From positions 1 through 56,601 of the forward strand of contig ML991879.1 of NCBI GenBank assembly GCA_010094025.1: a stretch of DNA of 56,601 bases. Direction: 5' to 3'. Positions 1 through 23,072 of this stretch are shown in pieces. How positions within the stretch are numbered: position 1 is the first letter of the stretch; the number at the start of each line of letters is the position of its first letter. The position numbers and the translations under genes were made by a program. The notes under the pieces were generated by a model. It did not search any database. It saw only the letters and a list, made by a program, of their open reading frames with translations, and was not told where the DNA came from. This DNA comes from Viridothelium virens. Lineage: Eukaryota; Ascomycota; Dothideomycetes; Trypetheliales; Trypetheliaceae.

Positions 1-1
1 T

Positions 2-345
2 TGTTCAATTCGGCTCGTAACTAACTGTAGGTACAGTTTTGGTATGATAATAAAACGCGAGGAAGTCAGTTAAGCTGGTTTCCTCCTGCATATATATACT
101 TGTGATCCTCTTGATCACGGCCGTTATCCTTCTGATCAGATCTCTACTGATCTTGAATTGATCACTACTGATCGGTGTGATAACCCGTGATCTGTGGGTG
201 ATCACCCTAGATCGCTCTACCCTGATCTGTAGTTTATCACCACTAATCAGTCACGTGACCTTTACTCGTTACGACCTGTCTGTGGAACGCTTGCAGCAAG
301 TACAAAGGAGATGGCGTTCAGCCTTGACGCGGCTGGGTCGTAACA
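2..345 (-). mobile_element. Putative solo LTR of a retrotransposon
   Basis: The segment begins TGTT (2-5) and ends AACA (342-345), the TG...CA termini expected of an LTR. GATAT (346-350) directly follows, and the only base before it (T at 1) matches the last base of GATAT, as a 5-bp target duplication would require. Read on the minus strand it starts TGTTACGACC, then has a run of GATC-containing repeats (a U3-like region) followed by a TATATATA box near 98-90, which is the usual LTR order. GC content is far higher than in the AT-rich DNA next to it. It could instead be the outer LTR of a full element lying left of the window, but base 1 is not the purine-rich tract expected there. The other target-duplication copy is outside the window. 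Confidence 0.5.
104..236. repeat. GATC/TGATC-rich short repeats inside the LTR
   Basis: About ten GATC words spaced roughly 8-20 bp apart, many as TGATC or GATCA, lie between 104 and 236. They are imperfect and not strictly tandem. In LTR terms they fall in the putative U3, where transcription-factor sites usually sit. No function is shown. Confidence 0.55.
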
Positions 346-1443
346 GATATACTTATACAACAAAATTTAGAATATAGCCTTGGCAATAAATACAATTTTA
401 AGTAGCCGTCTAATTAATCCAGTAAGTTTTAAAGAAGTATATTAATATTATATAATAAAGAGTATTATTTATAGCTGCATTATTGCTAATAATTATGCTA
501 ATTAACTTTATATAGCTATATTCTTTAAGGACCGGAAGTAAAACTAATTACTAAGCTTTGCTGTTATGGCCTAATATTATATAAAGACTGATTAAATAAG
601 TATAAAATTAATTAGTATAATTAATATAACTTACATAAATAGCTAAAAAAAGGTAGTTATTTAAAGATATCCAGATATTAATAGCTAAATGGATTTATAT
701 TTTTGCAGACTGGATTAATTTTTATATAATATCTTTTAATTCTGGAAAAAACTCTTAAACTCTTTTCTTTATTATATTATAAAAGTAAGGAAGTTTAACC
801 CAGGAATTAAGTGTAGAAATAAATTTATATAATACATCCTATTTAATAAGTTAAAAAAAAAGTCCGCATATAATAAGCAGATTAAGAAATGCTATTATTA
901 TAAGTATAATATTTATTATATAAGAGTATATATATCACTTAAATTTAGCCGCTTCTTCTTTTATATAAAGCTTTTTATAATCCGCTTTTAATTAATCAGT
1001 CAAAGTTAAAGCTATTAAATATAATATTATATAAAATTAATTAATCCCAATTTCTGGGTAATATTTTTAAATATAACCTTATAATTTACTGGTTAATAAA
1101 AAAGACTTTTTATTATAATATTTATAATAATAAAGTAATATTTTTTTAAGTCTCTTTAGTTTATTTAACTTTTTTATATAATAATAAATATGGATATCTA
1201 ACCTATATTAAGCTTTAGACTTAATACTCTTAATATCAGCAATAAAGAAAAATTCTTTAGTCTAAATAAATGCCATAATTATAGTTTATTTTATGCAAAG
1301 AGTCTTATTTTATAAAGAATTTCTAAAATTTAGCTATTTATGTAGGGGCTAGCATATTGTATAATAATATTATTATTATACCATATTGTATAATAAAAAT
1401 ACCGCTGATACTATCAGCGATAATCATACCGTTACCCAGTCTG
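346..1443 (-). mobile_element. Partial hAT copy, inverted, RIP-degraded
   Basis: This is the reverse complement of the first ~1.1 kb of the hAT element at 1535-3987. Position p pairs with 2978-p at both ends (1443 with 1535, 346 with 2632), so there is no net insertion or deletion over the arm. Its terminal repeat (1430-1443) differs from the intact one by one G-to-A change. Differences between arms are mostly C/T and G/A transitions, as RIP would leave. The other end of this copy is not visible: it stops where the putative LTR begins and may continue left of the window. It carries no readable gene. Confidence 0.8.
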
Positions 1444-1526
1444 CTTGGTGTCGCGGGCTGTTGCGCATGGAGCATTTTTCTGTTGGTGATAGCACCATAT
1501 TTGAAGTCCGTGCGGATCAACTCACC

Positions 1527-1534
1527 AGCGCAAG
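1527..1534. repeat. Left target-site duplication AGCGCAAG
   Basis: AGCGCAAG immediately precedes the hAT end at 1535 and is repeated exactly after the other end (3988-3995). Eight bases is the hAT-specific duplication length. Confidence 0.9.
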
Positions 1535-1548
1535 CAGACTGGGCAACG
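1535..1548 (+). repeat. hAT terminal inverted repeat, left
   Basis: CAGACTGGGCAACG, identical to the reverse complement of 3974-3987. The following bases (ACGATTATCGCTGATA) contain short TATCG/CGATA words. Confidence 0.88.
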
Positions 1549-3973
1549 GTACGATTATCGCTGATAGTATCAGTAGTATTTTTATTGTATAATACGGTAT
1601 AATAATAATACTATTGTATAATATATTAGCCCCCACATAAATAGCTAAATTTTAGAAATTTTTTATAAAATAAGACTCTTTGCATAAAATAAGTTATAAT
1701 TATAGCATTTATTTAGACTAAAGAATTTTTTTTTACTGCTAATATTAAAAGTACTAAGTCTAAAGCTTAATATAGGTTAGATATTTATATTTATTATTAT
1801 ATAAAAAAGCTAAATAAATTAAAGAGACTTAAAAAAGTATTACTTTATTATTATAAATATTATAATAAAAAGTCTTTTTTATTAACCAGTGGATTATAAG
1901 GTTATATTTAAAAATATTACCTAGAAGTTGGGATTAATTAATTTTGTATAATATTATACTTAATAGCTTTAACTTTAATTAATTAACTAAAAGCAGATTA
2001 TAAAAAGCTTTATATAAAAGGAGAAGCGGCTAAATTTAAGCAATATATATACTTTTGTATAATAAATATTATACTTATAATAATAATATTTTTTAATCTG
2101 CTTATTATATGCGGACTTTTTTTTTAACTTATTAAATAAGATATATTACATAAATTTATTTTTATGCTTAATTCCTGGGTTAAACTTCCTTATTTTTATA
2201 ATATAATAAAAAAAAGAGTTTAAGAGTTTTTTTTAAAATTAAAAAATATTATATAAAGATTAATTTAATCTGCAAAAATGCAAATCTATTTAGCTATTAA
2301 TATTTAGATATTTCTAAATAATTACCTTTTTTTAGCTATTTATGCAAGTTATATTAATTATATTAATTAATTTTATACTTATTTAATTAGTTTTTATATA
2401 ATACTAGGCTATAACAGCAAAGTTTAATAATCAGTCTTACTTTTAGTCCTTAAAGAATATGGCTATATAAAATTAATTAGTATAATTATTAGCAATAATG
2501 CAGCTATAAATAATACTCTTTATTATATAATATTAATATACTTCTTTAAAACTTATTAGATTAATTAAATAGTTACTTAAAATTATATTTACTGCTAAGG
2601 CTATATTCTAAATCTTATTATATAAGTATATCTTTTTAATAATAAAAATAATAAAAATAATATAGCTTTATATAATTAAAAAGAGCTTTTGGATAAGCAG
2701 CTAGATAAGAAGATATTAAAAAAAAGGCAAAATAAATTACATATTTAAATAAAAGTAATAAGTAAACTTTATAATTTTATTATTTATATTTATGTATCTG
2801 CTTTTTATATAATAGAATTTATTTTAAAAGCTGGTTAAAAAATCCCTTTTAATAATTATATAAAATAAAATAGCTGATTTAATATGCTTTAAGTTGCTAA
2901 AAAGTAATAAGTTAAAAAGGCGCTTATAATATATATAAATAAGTATTATAATACTAATTTATTAAATAAGAAAGATATTCTTACTTTAAAAGATTGGAAT
3001 TATTTTTATATAATTTATTAATATCTTAAAATATTTAAATAGGCTATATTATATCTTTAAGGAGATTATATAATACTTTAAAAAGTCTATAAAAGTATTA
3101 AAGCACTTTATAAGTAGCTTAAAAAAATTAATATATGTTATATAATTATATTAACCTTGTATAAAATATACTAATTAATTATTTTAAAAATTAAAGTTTT
3201 TAAAACAAATTTACGCTTAAGTATAATATATGCTTTTAAAATTAGAATAATATTAAGAAAAACTTAATATTTCTTTTTATTATTAAGTAGCCCACCTTTT
3301 ATTTTTTATAATTTATATAATATTTTTAAAAAATAAAAAGGGCAATTTAACTTAAAAGGGAGTTATATAATTTTAAAAAATTAGTAACTTTAACTTTAAT
3401 TCTTTTAAAAACCTTTTATTAATCTTAATTATTTATATAATATTTAAAAAAAGCTATTAACTTTTATATAAAAGTAAAACCTTACTCCTTTTAAATAAAT
3501 TCTTTAAGAGCATTATAATAACCAGTAATTATAAAGTTAAAATTAATTTAATTAATACTGCGTAAAAATAGCTTTATATAAGATTCCTTTATTATTAATT
3601 AAGTAATAAGTTAAAAATATTTAATAAAAATAATAACCACACCTCTTTTTATTTGCTTTTAATATTTTCTTAATTCCTGCAATAAGTAATAAACCAAAAT
3701 AGGTATTTTTTGGTGCGTGTTATATAATTTTTTAGGATAAAGCATAGCTTAATCCAGATATTATTAAACTTTAAGAACTTTTAAAGGATTAGAAAAAATC
3801 AAATATTTTAAAAAATTAATTATATAATTTAAAGTAAATTATCTCATATAATAGCTTATTAAGGGGAGGAATTTTATTTTATTACAATAATTGTGTCGGC
3901 GCTGATAATATCGGCGATATCGCGGTAATTTATCGTACGATAGGGCTTATCGTACGATACGTATCGCGCCTAT

Positions 3974-3987
3974 CGTTGCCCAGTCTG
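3974..3987 (-). repeat. hAT terminal inverted repeat, right
   Basis: CGTTGCCCAGTCTG, the reverse complement of the left end. The 75 bp just inside (3898-3973) are packed with TATCG/CGATA/CGTACGATA words, a likely subterminal binding region for the transposase. Confidence 0.88.
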
Positions 3988-3995
3988 AGCGCAAG
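3988..3995. repeat. Right target-site duplication AGCGCAAG
   Basis: Exact copy of 1527-1534, directly after the hAT end at 3987. It shows that the element inserted as a unit and was not truncated afterwards. Confidence 0.9.
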
Positions 3996-4062
3996 GGCAT
4001 ATGTGGACAAGGCTGAAGATGAAGCGTCGTCGCAAATGGCTGTGTTGTCAGCGCTAGAATAA

Positions 4063-12721: not shown

Positions 12722-12879
12722 TCATGTTCTCATTCCATGATCAATATACAGCTGAAGTGGACCAGGAGAAGAATACCGCTACATAATCCGGAGACTTTGT
12801 CACGTATAAATAACCACTGTACATATGCATATGCGAACCATCAAGAATCCAACTTTCTCTTTCTTTCTTCTGTGTTGAG

Positions 12880-14791
12880 ATGTCTTCCATTCGGTATGTG
12901 ACCTGTCCAATTGTTCAGATATCCGCTAAGAAAGATTCTAAGCCTACCACTCCTCGGGCTATTCGCATTATTTGCAACTCTCGGAGAAGGCCAATTTGTA
13001 GACCCTCCCAACGATCTCATCAAGAAGACGGGGTATGCAGGTGTCGATGTCCGATACAAAGAAGTACCAACAGGAATCTGTGAACTCAATCCAGCTGTCA
13101 AATCATATTCCGGCTACGCCGATGTTGCCGAAAATCAACACATGTTTTGGATGTTTTTTGAGACCCGCAATGGCGATCCTACGACAGCCCCTCTAACACT
13201 TTGGATATCAGGAGGGCCTGGAGCAAGCTCAATGTACGAACTTTGGCAAGAGCTAGGTAAGTCTTACTTGCGGTGCAACCAAGTTGCTGCACTAATTTTC
13301 AACTTCTAGGCCCTTGCTTGATTAACTCCAGCATCGAGGTGAATAACAACCCATACAGCTGGAACGAATTCAGCAACATGATATTCATTGATCAACCAAT
13401 ACAAACAGGGCTCTCATACAGTGTCCCTACCCCAGGCTACGTAGATCCGGAGGGAGATACAATCGCCAACCTTCCCGACAACACGTGCTCTGACTGGGCA
13501 TCAGACTGGGATTGCGGGAAGTATTCCCGTGCCGACCAAACGACTACTGCAAACTCTACAGTTGACGCTGCCCCCAACGTCTGGAAGACCTTGCAAGGGT
13601 TCGTGGGCGTATTCCCACCGTATGCGCGAGACGGATTCCATTTCGCGACTGAATAATACGGAGGCCATTACGGGCCAGTCTTCGCAAAATATTTCAAGGA
13701 TCAAAATTCGAGGCTCTTCAACGCTTCATCGCCAGCAAGGGAGATCAATTTGGAGAGTGTGCTTATTGGGAATGGATGGTACGATCCGTTGATCCAAAAT
13801 GAGGCCTACTATAACTTCTCCGTGCAACCTGGTAACACTTACGACATTTTACTTGACAAAGACCATGCACATATGATGTACAATGCCATATATGGCCCTG
13901 GAAACTGCCGCGGTCATACTTTACAGTGCTACAATACCGGTAGACAAGATGTGTGCCAAGATGCTGACAACTTCTGCTCAAATGAGGTCGAAGCTATTTA
14001 CAAAGATTTCCTCCACCGAGATGTATACGATGTACGCGAACTCATTCCGGATCCAATTCCGCCAGATTGGCACGCCGATTATCTCAACACAGAGAGAATC
14101 CAAGTATGAATACCATGTCGAGAGCAAATCTGGCTGCTAATATGGTCGTAGAAAGCCATTGGTGCCTACGTCAACTACACATCAGACAGCGCCTTCGTCA
14201 GTCAATCATTTTCTGATACTGGGGACGATTCGCGTGTTTTCTCTATCATCCAAGACATGCGAGACCTGGTAGCAGCAAATCTCACTGTGGTCATGTACTT
14301 TGCAGACGCCGACTTTGAGTGCAAGTGGATCGGCGGGTAAGTAGATGTCCAGTACGAAATGCGGTCGAGCCTGTCTAACGTAGCATAGGTATGCTGTCGC
14401 TGAAGAGATAGGTGTTTCAGGTTTCGAAAAAGCAGGCTTTGTCAATATCACCACTGGAGATGACATTGTCCATGGTCAAGTAAAACAAGTCGGCAAATTT
14501 AGTTTTGTTCGAATCTTTGAGAGTGGTCACTCTGCGCCATTCTACCAACCTCTTGTCTCAATGGAAATGGTAGAACGAGCGATCAACGGATTTGACATTG
14601 CCACTGGCAAGACTAAAGTTGGACCAACCTATCAAACTGTCGGATCTCCGACTTCGACATATCATGAAGGAAACGCAACTGTTCAGTATGAACCTCTACC
14701 TTCTGATGCTTTTTACAATACAACAACGAACGAACCGGAAAGGCCGCCGAGTAGGATGAGTCAAAAACAACACCTTCCATGGCATTTATGA
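12880..14791 (+). pseudogene. Serine carboxypeptidase (S10), stop at nucleophile
   Basis: Peptidase family S10, secreted or vacuolar enzymes that trim C-terminal residues. Five exons: 12880-12893, 12943-13256, 13310-14103, 14152-14336, 14389-14791; all junctions are in phase and give 569 codons. Exon 1 joined to exon 2 yields a hydrophobic signal peptide (MSSIRLPLLGLFALFATLG). Seen: W-I-S-G-G-P-G-A-S-S (oxyanion region), F-I-D-Q-P, the Asp region (A-D-A-D-F-E-C-K-W) and the His region (E-S-G-H-S-A-P-F). The nucleophile block, normally G-E-S-Y-G-G, reads A-T-E-stop-Y-G-G-H-Y-G-P: codon 225 is TAA (13654-13656) where serine belongs. Everything after it is open and well conserved, so the loss looks recent, or the base is a sequence error. 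A single TCA-to-TAA change would explain it. Confidence 0.85.
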
Positions 14792-20360: not shown

Positions 20361-22256
20361 TTAGCGCCGCTTTCGTCGACGTAATTCCCATTGATCATCT
20401 TGGTCTAATATTTCTCCCGTCTGTGGTCCATCAAGACCGCCGATATTTTCCTCCGAAAACCTCGAACTCTCTCCACGCGATGGCTTTCTCCAACTGTCTT
20501 GTGGATTTTTCGATCCAAATGGTATCCGGAACTTGGTGGAAATCATGCTTGGACCTCGCTCTGGAATCTTAAGATAATCAAAATCTCCTCTCATATGCCG
20601 CGCGAGATGTAATGCCGCCTCAAGGACCTCTTTCCCAGTCGGCACGATATGCTCCTTCGGCAGGAGGAAGCCGTAGCTTCCAGTGTCCCGTAGCTTAATT
20701 TGGAAGGCATAGCGAACGCCCATCTCACCATAAAACCAGTCAAGTGCTGATCCCCCACCTTGTGGAAGGCTAGACTTGCGTGGAGCTTTCTCTGATATTG
20801 GCATGACATTTCCCTCGCAGGCGGAGACGACCTTGTAGTAATGTCCACTTGACAGGCGCATTGCCTTAGCCAAACCCATGGCCAGTTCTTGCAAATTCTC
20901 TAGACTTGGAGGCGATGCGGTACAAGAGTAAGAATATGGATATAGGACTTCTTGAGAATAGGAGTGGAGATCTAGGAATGCAACGACCTCTGCATTGTGG
21001 TTGGTAGTCTGGTTCCGGACCCAGTCAACAAAGGTCCCAGTCTCAATTGCCCCAAAGGGCTCTTCGCCTGCAAAACTTTCGCTGCAAGGATTGTCGGATG
21101 TCACTGCGCCGTCCCAGTGGTATCCGAAGGAGCGATCCAAGTCTATTCCAGAGCAAAATCGAAGAGACGTAGGTTGACGGCTCTTGCGCCACAGGCGGTC
21201 GTCATTCCACGTGTAGACATAACCATCCGGGTTGACGGATGGGACGAAAATCCAATCAAACGATTCAATGAGACTAGTGATGAGCTGAGATTTCCCATAT
21301 TGAGTCGCAAGAGAATACGCAAGATAGTTGACAGATGAAGTACTGATCCATTCCCGCGCATGAATGCCGCCGGTGACGATGATGGTTTTTCGAGGGGGAA
21401 GCGGCTTCTCCGAGTTCGTGGGGTGTACGCCAACTTTCAGGGCCGGTATCTCGCGGTTCTCAAAAGTCTTGCCAACATTTATCATCCGAACATGGGTTGG
21501 AAAGATGGAGGCCATCAAACGCATCCACGGAAGTATGACACTGAGCGGCTGATAATTTTGAAAGAATATATTGGCATCCTCAGTATTACTAGACGCAGTA
21601 TTCGGGTTTGAGAGTTGGTTATCGTGTGGCCTTGTGGACGAGGAAAAGGTCTGGGGATATGAGTTGTAGACTGCTTGGGCCAGGTCGAGGTCTTGCATGA
21701 TCGGGGCGTGTGCATCTTGTAGAGACTCTGGCAACAAGCTTAAGAGAGGAGAGACCTGAAAGACTGTTAGCCATTGAATATTGAAGCGAAGGAGGCTTCG
21801 TCTTACGGTATCCTTTGAAAGCCGTACATCAACAAAGCTCTCACCAAATTCCCACACATCGAGAAAAAGTATTTCGCATGCTTCCGACAGTGCCCACGCC
21901 TCATCTGCGGTGGAACAATTGAACCGCAAGACTATATCCTCGCTATACCTCGTACGAAGCCTGTGTGTTGGTTGCCCATCTCCGCCTCTTGAGACTGAGG
22001 AACTTGCCAGAGATTTTACACTTTCTGGGTAGCCTAACACTTTCTGGATGATTCTGTTGGATAGTCTTCGCCAGCTGCTCAATTGGTGGTGTGGATAATG
22101 TTCTTCAGAAACCTTGGCAATCCCAGACTTGGGCTCGAGACGACGATAGGACTGCGAGGTTGCACCAGAGACAAGTGAAGCCAAACAAATGGAGAGAAGG
22201 GCGATGAAGAGTAGCCTGAGAGTTAGTGAGGTTGCAACCGCACTCCTGATCGCCAT
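20361..22256 (-). CDS. ECM14: Ecm14-like inactive metallocarboxypeptidase
   Basis: Secreted or vacuolar protein of the M14 carboxypeptidase fold. Exons 22256-21807 and 21755-20361 give 614 residues. The 51-bp intron is a multiple of three and has no stop, so a naive translation would carry 17 extra residues; its donor GTAAGA, GGCTAAC branch and TTTCAG acceptor support splicing. Seen: signal peptide, a propeptide-like N-terminal part, zinc ligands in G-I-H-A-R-E-W, substrate loop P-D-G-Y-V-Y-T-W-N-D-D-R-L-W-R-K, third ligand L-D-L-H-S-Y-S, and F-Q-I-K-L-R-D-T-G-S-Y-G-F-L. The catalytic glutamate of active M14 enzymes is lysine here (I-K-L-R-D), as known for Ecm14, a pseudoenzyme tied to cell-wall function in yeast. 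It ends in a basic RRRKRR. It shares an 0.8-kb divergent promoter with the Sec7 gene. Confidence 0.9.
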   Translation of the reverse strand: MAIRSAVATSLTLRLLFIALLSICLASLVSGATSQSYRRLEPKSGIAKVSEEHYPHHQLSSWRRLSNRIIQKVLGYPESVKSLASSSVSRGGDGQPTHRLRTRYSEDIVLRFNCSTADEAWALSEACEILFLDVWEFGESFVDVRLSKDTVRRSLLRFNIQWLTVFQVSPLLSLLPESLQDAHAPIMQDLDLAQAVYNSYPQTFSSSTRPHDNQLSNPNTASSNTEDANIFFQNYQPLSVILPWMRLMASIFPTHVRMINVGKTFENREIPALKVGVHPTNSEKPLPPRKTIIVTGGIHAREWISTSSVNYLAYSLATQYGKSQLITSLIESFDWIFVPSVNPDGYVYTWNDDRLWRKSRQPTSLRFCSGIDLDRSFGYHWDGAVTSDNPCSESFAGEEPFGAIETGTFVDWVRNQTTNHNAEVVAFLDLHSYSQEVLYPYSYSCTASPPSLENLQELAMGLAKAMRLSSGHYYKVVSACEGNVMPISEKAPRKSSLPQGGGSALDWFYGEMGVRYAFQIKLRDTGSYGFLLPKEHIVPTGKEVLEAALHLARHMRGDFDYLKIPERGPSMISTKFRIPFGSKNPQDSWRKPSRGESSRFSEENIGGLDGPQTGEILDQDDQWELRRRKRR

Positions 22257-23072
22257 TGACGCCGTGGTAGAATTAGCATGCCAGCAGTTCGTCGAAAGGC
22301 ACAAGAAAGGGCGGAATCAAAGAAGGAAAGATGTCGCGTGCCTCAGTGGGAGGAGAAGAGCATCTCGTCATCTGTCAGTGGCGCCTGCGGAAGAAGACGA
22401 GAGGGGAGGAGCGGGGCAGCGGCTGCAGGCGTCGATTTCGTTGTGCAGGTGCAGCAATCCCGGTAGTTCGTTACGTACCCGTGCCGTATCGATCAATGCA
22501 TCCCAACTGGAAGTTTGCTCTCGGTCAAGCACATGCCAGTTTGTCGGCGCACCCACTCTCCTCGCCCTCCTGATGTGATTGTCAGCTGTCCGCGCGTCGA
22601 CGGGACGGATTCAAAGTCTACGGCGGGTGGGCCATCAGTGTAATGCTGTATTACGGCGGCGGCGGAGCACGACGTCAAGAGCGGAAGCACACGGTCCATT
22701 GTCCGAGAGGAGGCCAAACCGCCCCCTTCGCTGCTGAACCTAAGTATCTTGTACTCCAGCACTTTGATGCGACACCATCCTGCCCGTCACCTTCATCTCT
22801 GTATATCAACTCAGTCACTCGTTTTTCCCTCGAAGCTCTGTCCTGTCCTCGTCCGACCATCCCGTTTTCGCCCTCACCCAGTCGCGTCGTGCCGTCAGCC
22901 TTGCATCATCTCAGCTACAAACCTGCCAACATCCTGGCATCGCACATCGAACCCCGACTGTGTTGCTCGTGGGGCAGATCCACCCAAGCTCTACCTCCCA
23001 TAGGTGTTCTCCACTGAATTGACTCTCTCTTGAGACTCATGAGTGCTTCACTGTTGCTGCTCATGACCCGTC
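22257..23072. promoter_or_regulatory. Divergent promoter, ECM14 and Sec7 gene
   Basis: An 816-bp gap between two diverging genes. It is GC-rich near the ECM14 side and pyrimidine-rich on the plus strand near 22760-22960, typical of fungal leaders. Overlapping open frames here are compositional. Confidence 0.4.

What the first reader, a model, noticed from the sequence alone, without database searches (positions are those of the whole stretch)
13651..13668. Carboxypeptidase inactivated exactly at the catalytic serine codon
Codon 225 is TAA where the G-E-S-Y-G-G motif needs serine; the rest of the five-exon gene, including the Asp and His regions and all splice sites, is intact. A single C-to-A change (TCA to TAA) suffices, and it is not a RIP-type mutation. 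This may be a very recent loss, a strain polymorphism or a base error.
Basis: partly seen in the sequence, partly recalled or inferred. Interest (0 to 1): 0.7.

Follow-up and report, generated by a model that had tools for sequence, protein, structure and literature searches.

The report
Fungal carboxypeptidase gene with stop codon
A fungal gene for a secreted protein-cutting enzyme carries one stop codon exactly where its reactive serine should be, which most likely makes it a recently lost spare copy in a large gene family and is an ordinary kind of gene loss.

Summary
An otherwise open five-exon S10 serine carboxypeptidase gene (window 12880-14791, +) has TAA at codon 225 (13654-13656), on the nucleophile position of Pfam S10. 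Asp428, His483 and four GT-AG introns are present. The motif is T-E-*-Y-G-G, not G-E-*-Y-G-G.

Best reading: a real, recent null allele among about 16 S10 genes of this genome. No RIP signature; branch not accelerated. No splicing, editing or readthrough route that I examined returns the serine.

Two corrections. The single C-to-A step from TCA is inferred: the two nearest paralogs use AGY here, though the tree favours a TCN ancestor. And the active site was already unusual: positions equivalent to carboxypeptidase Y Asn51, Gly335, Asn342 and Val399 differ (4 of 19 active-site-window positions, against 2 of 102 pooled over seven paralogs), though stricter counts show no overall excess. The Asn51 change is three nucleotide steps, so probably old.

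A base error cannot be excluded without reads. A random one-step stop would land on a TCA serine about 1% of the time. Low interest.

The parts
12805..12812 (+). TATA-like box TATAAATA, about 70 bp upstream of the start codon
   Evidence: read directly; no expression test
12880..12893 (+). exon 1 (start codon)
   Evidence: splice model
12943..13256 (+). exon 2: hydrophobic, signal-peptide-like N terminus and start of the S10 domain (W-I-S-G-G-P-G)
   Evidence: the signal-peptide reading is by eye
13310..14103 (+). exon 3, contains the stop at codon 225
13654..13656 (+). in-frame TAA at codon 225, on the S10 nucleophile position (T-E-*-Y-G-G)
14152..14336 (+). exon 4, with the catalytic Asp region
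14311..14313 (+). Asp428, equivalent to carboxypeptidase Y Asp338
14389..14791 (+). exon 5, with the catalytic His region and the terminal stop
14528..14530 (+). His483, equivalent to carboxypeptidase Y His397
13208..13210 (+). Ser94 (TCA) at the carboxypeptidase Y Asn51 position; Asn in 13 of the 14 other family genes in which the motif was located (Ala in C8; not located in C31)
14302..14304 (+). Ala425 at the Gly335 position
14323..14325 (+). Lys432 at the Asn342 position
14534..14536 (+). Ala485 at the Val399 position (this position also varies in some paralogs)

Best explanation
This is a secreted S10-family serine carboxypeptidase paralog that has become a null allele, recently on an evolutionary scale, by a point change that left TAA at the nucleophile codon. 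Translation stops after 224 residues, before the nucleophile, Asp and His, so no carboxypeptidase can be made; the transcript is probably a nonsense-mediated-decay target, because two introns lie downstream (inferred). The loss is probably tolerated because the genome keeps about 15 other S10 genes, among them two apparently intact members of the same subfamily. The stop falling on the serine is a coincidence that made it conspicuous. Shown: the stop, its position, the open frame and splice sites, the paralogs. Inferred: that it is real in the organism, that it is recent, that the earlier residue was serine, and redundancy.
For: One internal stop in 569 codons, no frameshift, four good introns. 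S10 domain on both sides of the stop. 32 S10 matches in this assembly (a lower bound by the tool's own words), which I group into 16 genes. Two nearest paralogs, C17 and C133, at 54.7% and 54.2% identity, with TESYGG and canonical Asp and His regions. C109 branch 0.38 against 0.54 and 0.58 for C17 and C133 from the same node, so no long period of decay. In a neutral-decay simulation the 1345 runs without a second disabling change had on average 9 mutations, 95th percentile 29 (rates were my assumptions). Conserved neighbouring genes have long open frames with Pfam domains. Loss-of-function alleles are common in one well-studied fungus: in Zymoseptoria tritici 45.4% of core genes carry one in at least one of 123 isolates (PMC5765654, passages).
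Against: No reads, transcript or second isolate could be examined, so a base error is not excluded. No ortholog from another species was found: the GTDB scan gave 12 prokaryotic loci, and the viral scan, run with one exon piece only, none. Substitutions at conserved active-site positions suggest that the story may not have started with the stop. By raw counts C109 is the odd one out at 96 of 530 sites, against 54 for C133 and 52 for C17, which I read as its outgroup position and not as acceleration.
Confidence: 0.72

Rival explanations
1. The TAA is a base error in the assembly and the living gene has a sense codon here.
For: It is a single substitution in an otherwise open gene, with no broken gene seen among the neighbours scanned.
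Against: Consensus substitution errors are rare compared with real loss-of-function alleles in fungi (error rates recalled; loss-of-function frequency in Z. tritici). Long conserved neighbouring frames show no sign of a high error rate, though they could not reveal a rare one.
Confidence: 0.13
2. The gene had already become a non-canonical S10 protein (altered specificity or pseudoenzyme) with its frame kept by selection; the stop then ended it. The residue before TAA may not have been serine.
For: In active-site windows C109 departs from residues invariant in the other long genes at 4 of 19 positions, against 2 of 102 pooled over seven paralogs (Fisher 0.0055); elsewhere 4 of 57 against 44 of 373. 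Without C57 the count is 5 of 21. Ser94 (TCA) is at least three nucleotide changes from any Asn codon. In the simulation of decay after the stop, 4 or more active-site hits occurred in 0 of 1345 surviving runs and 3 or more in 0.5%.
Against: Within C109 alone the excess is weak (Fisher 0.10 and 0.095 in the two sets). When C8 or all 16 genes are kept in the invariance test, C109 departs at 4 of 63 or 2 of 46 positions, ordinary numbers, and only Gly425Ala of these lies in the active-site windows. The windows were chosen after seeing the alignment. The Val399 position also varies in other genes (Q or I). Paralogs are not orthologs: these residues may be normal for this subfamily.
Confidence: 0.1
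3. The stop is bypassed: an alternative intron, RNA editing or readthrough gives a full or near-full protein.
For: 84 of 247 candidate GT/GC...AG pairs around the stop would keep the frame, some with a GTATGC donor at 13620.
Against: All such introns delete codon 225 itself. Fungal A-to-I editing of stop codons yields Trp in the cases described (PMC7306014, passages). Yeast reads UAA as Gln, Lys or Tyr (PMC4973966, passages), and UAA is the least leaky stop (PMC12233894, passages). None of these gives serine.
Confidence: 0.03
4. It is an old pseudogene that happens to look intact.
For: Several conserved positions are changed.
Against: No second stop, frameshift or lost splice site in 1912 bp; branch not accelerated.
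Confidence: 0.02

Closest known systems
Peptidase family S10 (Pfam PF00450), fungal members with the T-E-S-Y-G-G motif; nearest relatives are paralogs C17 (L012) and C133 (L016)
   Same: S10 domain before and after the stop, Asp and His present, hydrophobic N terminus, 54-55% identity over 530-odd aligned positions
   Different: Nucleophile codon is TAA; Asn51-, Gly335- and Asn342-equivalent residues replaced; introns 2, 3 and 4 are not seen in C17 or C133, where the alignment runs on without a gap of intron size (intron 1 not examined there); it lacks the intron that both appear to have just after the motif
Yeast carboxypeptidase Y (PDB 1wpx, 1ysc, 1cpy)
   Same: Best hit among solved structures for the four exon pieces searched (the exon 3 piece before the stop was not searched)
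   Different: Active enzyme with Ser146 (recalled), Asn51 and Asn342
Segregating nonsense alleles in fungal species, e.g. Zymoseptoria tritici (PMC5765654, passages)
   Same: One early stop in an otherwise open gene of a multi-copy family
   Different: Here only one genome is available, so segregation is not shown

Membership tests
Peptidase S10 (PF00450) | Profile match above the curated cut-off | tested here: met
   Four of five exon pieces score 56.0, 47.4, 44.7 and 29.2 bits against a cut-off of 21.9; the exon 4 piece alone did not match
Peptidase S10 (PF00450) | Nucleophile serine in [GT]-E-S-Y-[AG]-G | tested here: not met
   TAA at codon 225
Peptidase S10 (PF00450) | Catalytic Asp and His | tested here: met
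   D428 and H483 align with carboxypeptidase Y Asp338 and His397
Peptidase S10 (PF00450) | Asn in N-G-G-P-G (carboxypeptidase Y Asn51) | tested here: not met
   Ser94 here; Asn in 13 of 14 other family genes of this genome in which the motif was located, and in 9 of 10 bacterial loci in which it was located, of 12 fetched
Peptidase S10 (PF00450) | Carboxypeptidase activity | not testable with these tools
   needs protein; predicted absent
Pseudogene / null allele | Disabling change in a gene with apparently intact relatives | tested here: met
Pseudogene / null allele | Disabling change present in the organism's DNA and not only in the assembly | not testable with these tools
   no reads available
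RIP-inactivated gene | Raised TpA/ApT and low (CpA+TpG)/(ApC+GpT) | tested here: not met
   0.67 and 1.23, composite -0.55, like the rest of the window (-0.64)

The most novel reading that the evidence does not exclude
The gene belonged to a subfamily of secreted S10 proteins that gave up canonical carboxypeptidase chemistry (Asn51, Gly335 and Asn342 positions replaced) while the fold stayed under selection, so the nucleophile position was already free to change before TAA appeared there. If so, the stop on the serine is less of a coincidence, and sister species should hold frame-intact, serine-less relatives.
Probability: 0.12. Interest if true: 0.45.

Novelty: new member of a known kind. Interest (0 to 1): 0.22.

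Why it matters
It is a tidy example of loss in a large, probably redundant secreted-peptidase family, and a caution for annotation, since automatic gene callers may split the gene or invent an intron to avoid the stop. If the active-site changes came first and are shared by sister species, it would point to a non-enzymatic or altered role for a fungal S10 subfamily.

Tried and rejected
Ancestral codon: because C17 (AGT) and C133 (AGC) use the other serine codon box, I first suspected that the one-step route was impossible. The tree puts C109 outside that pair with TCN outgroups, so the one-step route stays the most parsimonious.

Intron at the serine codon: in paralog C1a the serine codon is split by an apparent intron, and in C8 an apparent intron follows it directly (read by eye). 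In C109 there is no GT between the Glu and Tyr codons, so the TAA is not the edge of an unrecognised intron at that spot. A relic of imprecise intron loss would more naturally leave TAG; rejected as needing extra steps.

RIP: rejected for this gene. Old pseudogene: rejected.

Searches that gave little: genome contigs returned 12 prokaryotic relatives and no fungal ortholog; viral contigs, asked with the exon 3 piece behind the stop, returned none; paper searches for the assembly size and for carboxypeptidase Y with Asn51 returned none; a search combining serine carboxypeptidase, fungal, gene family, pseudogene and S10 listed 8 papers, of which I opened none. A paper on serine codon boxes (PMC6872785, passages) says only that a switch needs two changes in tandem. 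The tea SCPL paper (PMC7330524, passages) did not settle what the Asn51 position does. The organism was not identified; 'ascomycete fungus' is inferred from a fungal rhodopsin domain, short introns and the RIP-like block.

Full report
Observation. The window is contig C109 (56,601 bp) of a 30.7 Mb, 175-contig assembly. The gene runs 12880-14791 on the + strand in five exons; the spliced frame has 569 codons before its terminal stop, one of which is TAA: codon 225, 13654-13656. All introns are 48-53 bp with GT...AG ends. Pfam S10 matches profile positions 6-143 before the stop and 145-255 and 375-420 after it; the exon 4 piece alone did not match. Asp428 and His483 align with carboxypeptidase Y Asp338 and His397 (E 0.042, E 1.4e-5; numbering).

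Is it more than chance? 167 of 568 other codons are one substitution from a stop, by 225 paths. A TCA serine would add two, so about 1% of random single-step stops would fall on it. Given how common nonsense and frameshift alleles are in one well-studied fungus (PMC5765654, passages: 45.4% of core Z. tritici genes have a loss-of-function mutation in at least one of 123 isolates), a scan of many genes should meet such a case from time to time. A stop anywhere before the histidine would be equally inactivating, so I see no reason for selection to prefer the serine codon.

Family. One search gave 32 S10 matches (a lower bound by the tool's own words), which I group into 16 genes. Stops were flagged inside matches of four genes: C109, C99, C133 and C1a. 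In the last three they look like introns, because the alignment resumes on both sides (for C1a the split serine codon is visible). I did not verify the splice sites of the paralogs one by one, nor check them for frameshifts. With that limit, 1 of 16 family genes shows a clear disabling stop. Serine codons in the other 15: TCN in nine (C57, C99, C41, C13, C33, C4, C137, C1a, C8) and AGY in six (C1b, C7, C31, C94, C17, C133) (C1a and C8 by eye). A DNA search of the own genome found only two further short matches, 178 bp at 72% in C133 and 158 bp at 70% in C17, so there is no recent duplicate of this gene.

History. A tree of the nine family genes with enough aligned sequence (9 of 16; query-anchored alignment, LG+G4) puts C109 next to, and outside, C17+C133 (100 for that pair, 89 for the trio; deeper nodes 42-100). 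A second tree of seven genes gave 99 and 80. The six other genes in the first tree use TCN. The C109 branch (0.38) is shorter than the paths to C17 (0.54) and C133 (0.58), so the protein seems to have been constrained for nearly all of its history. Raw counts make C109 the odd one out at 96 of 530 sites, against 54 and 52, as expected of the outgroup of three. The gene has no RIP signature, while the AT-rich block at 1-4000 does.

Active site. Positions invariant among the other long genes (at least five residues present) were compared by leave-one-out. C8 was left out because it is itself divergent, and the seven shorter genes for lack of aligned sequence. In windows around the triad and N-G-G-P-G, C109 departs at 4 of 19; the other seven genes together at 2 of 102 (Fisher 0.0055; the pairs are not independent). 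Elsewhere C109 departs at 4 of 57 and the others at 44 of 373 (Fisher 0.37). Against this: within C109 alone the contrast is weak (Fisher 0.10, or 0.095 without C57), the windows were set after I had seen the alignment, and an earlier count that kept C8 or all 16 genes gave C109 ordinary numbers, 4 of 63 and 2 of 46, with only Gly425Ala in the active-site windows. Ser94 is encoded by TCA, three changes from any Asn codon, so that change is probably old. A simulation of neutral change after the stop, conditioned on no second disabling event, gave 3 or more hits among 19 hand-picked active-site positions in 0.5% and 4 or more in 0 of 1345 surviving runs of 20,000 (mutation parameters were my assumptions). 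I read this as modest evidence that the gene was already a non-standard S10 member before it was broken.

Bypass. 84 of 247 candidate introns of 40-300 bp would remove the stop in frame, but each removes codon 225 as a whole. A-to-I editing of stop codons in fungi gives tryptophan in the cases described (PMC7306014, passages). Yeast inserts Gln, Lys or Tyr at UAA (PMC4973966, passages) and UAA is the tightest stop (PMC12233894, passages). No route known to me gives serine.

Surroundings. I scanned 30 of the 61 open frames of at least 130 codons in the window against Pfam; 17 of the 30 matched, many of them housekeeping: dynamin, dihydrofolate reductase, M14 carboxypeptidase, Sec7/PH, poly(A) polymerase, cofilin, SNARE, thiamine enzymes, eIF5. 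The gene does not seem to lie among broken genes.

Verdict. It is an ordinary, probably real and recent, null allele of a secreted carboxypeptidase in a large family, with an undecided chance of base error. The unusual active-site residues are the only part that might interest a specialist, and the evidence for them is modest.

Noticed in passing
window 1-4000: AT-rich block (22% GC over 1-4000, 17.7% at 2001-4000) with RIP-like dinucleotide indices at the contig end, while the rest of the window is normal.
   Followed up: partly
L019 (paralog on C8): Another S10 paralog with non-canonical active-site motifs: Y-F-A-G-G-P-G and, across an apparent intron, G-N-S-Y-G-G. With C109, two of the 15 S10 genes in which the motif was located lack Asn at the Asn51 position.
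   Followed up: partly
L019 and L020 (paralogs on C8 and C1): Apparent introns abut or split the catalytic serine codon: after TCG in C8, within TC|A in C1a (by eye).
   Followed up: partly
L012 and L016 (paralogs on C17 and C133): Both nearest paralogs encode the nucleophile serine with AGY while the six other genes in the tree (apart from C109) use TCN, a switch between serine codon boxes.
   Followed up: partly
window 20364-22316 (-): A zinc carboxypeptidase (Peptidase_M14) gene lies 5.6 kb downstream of the broken S10 gene.
   Followed up: no
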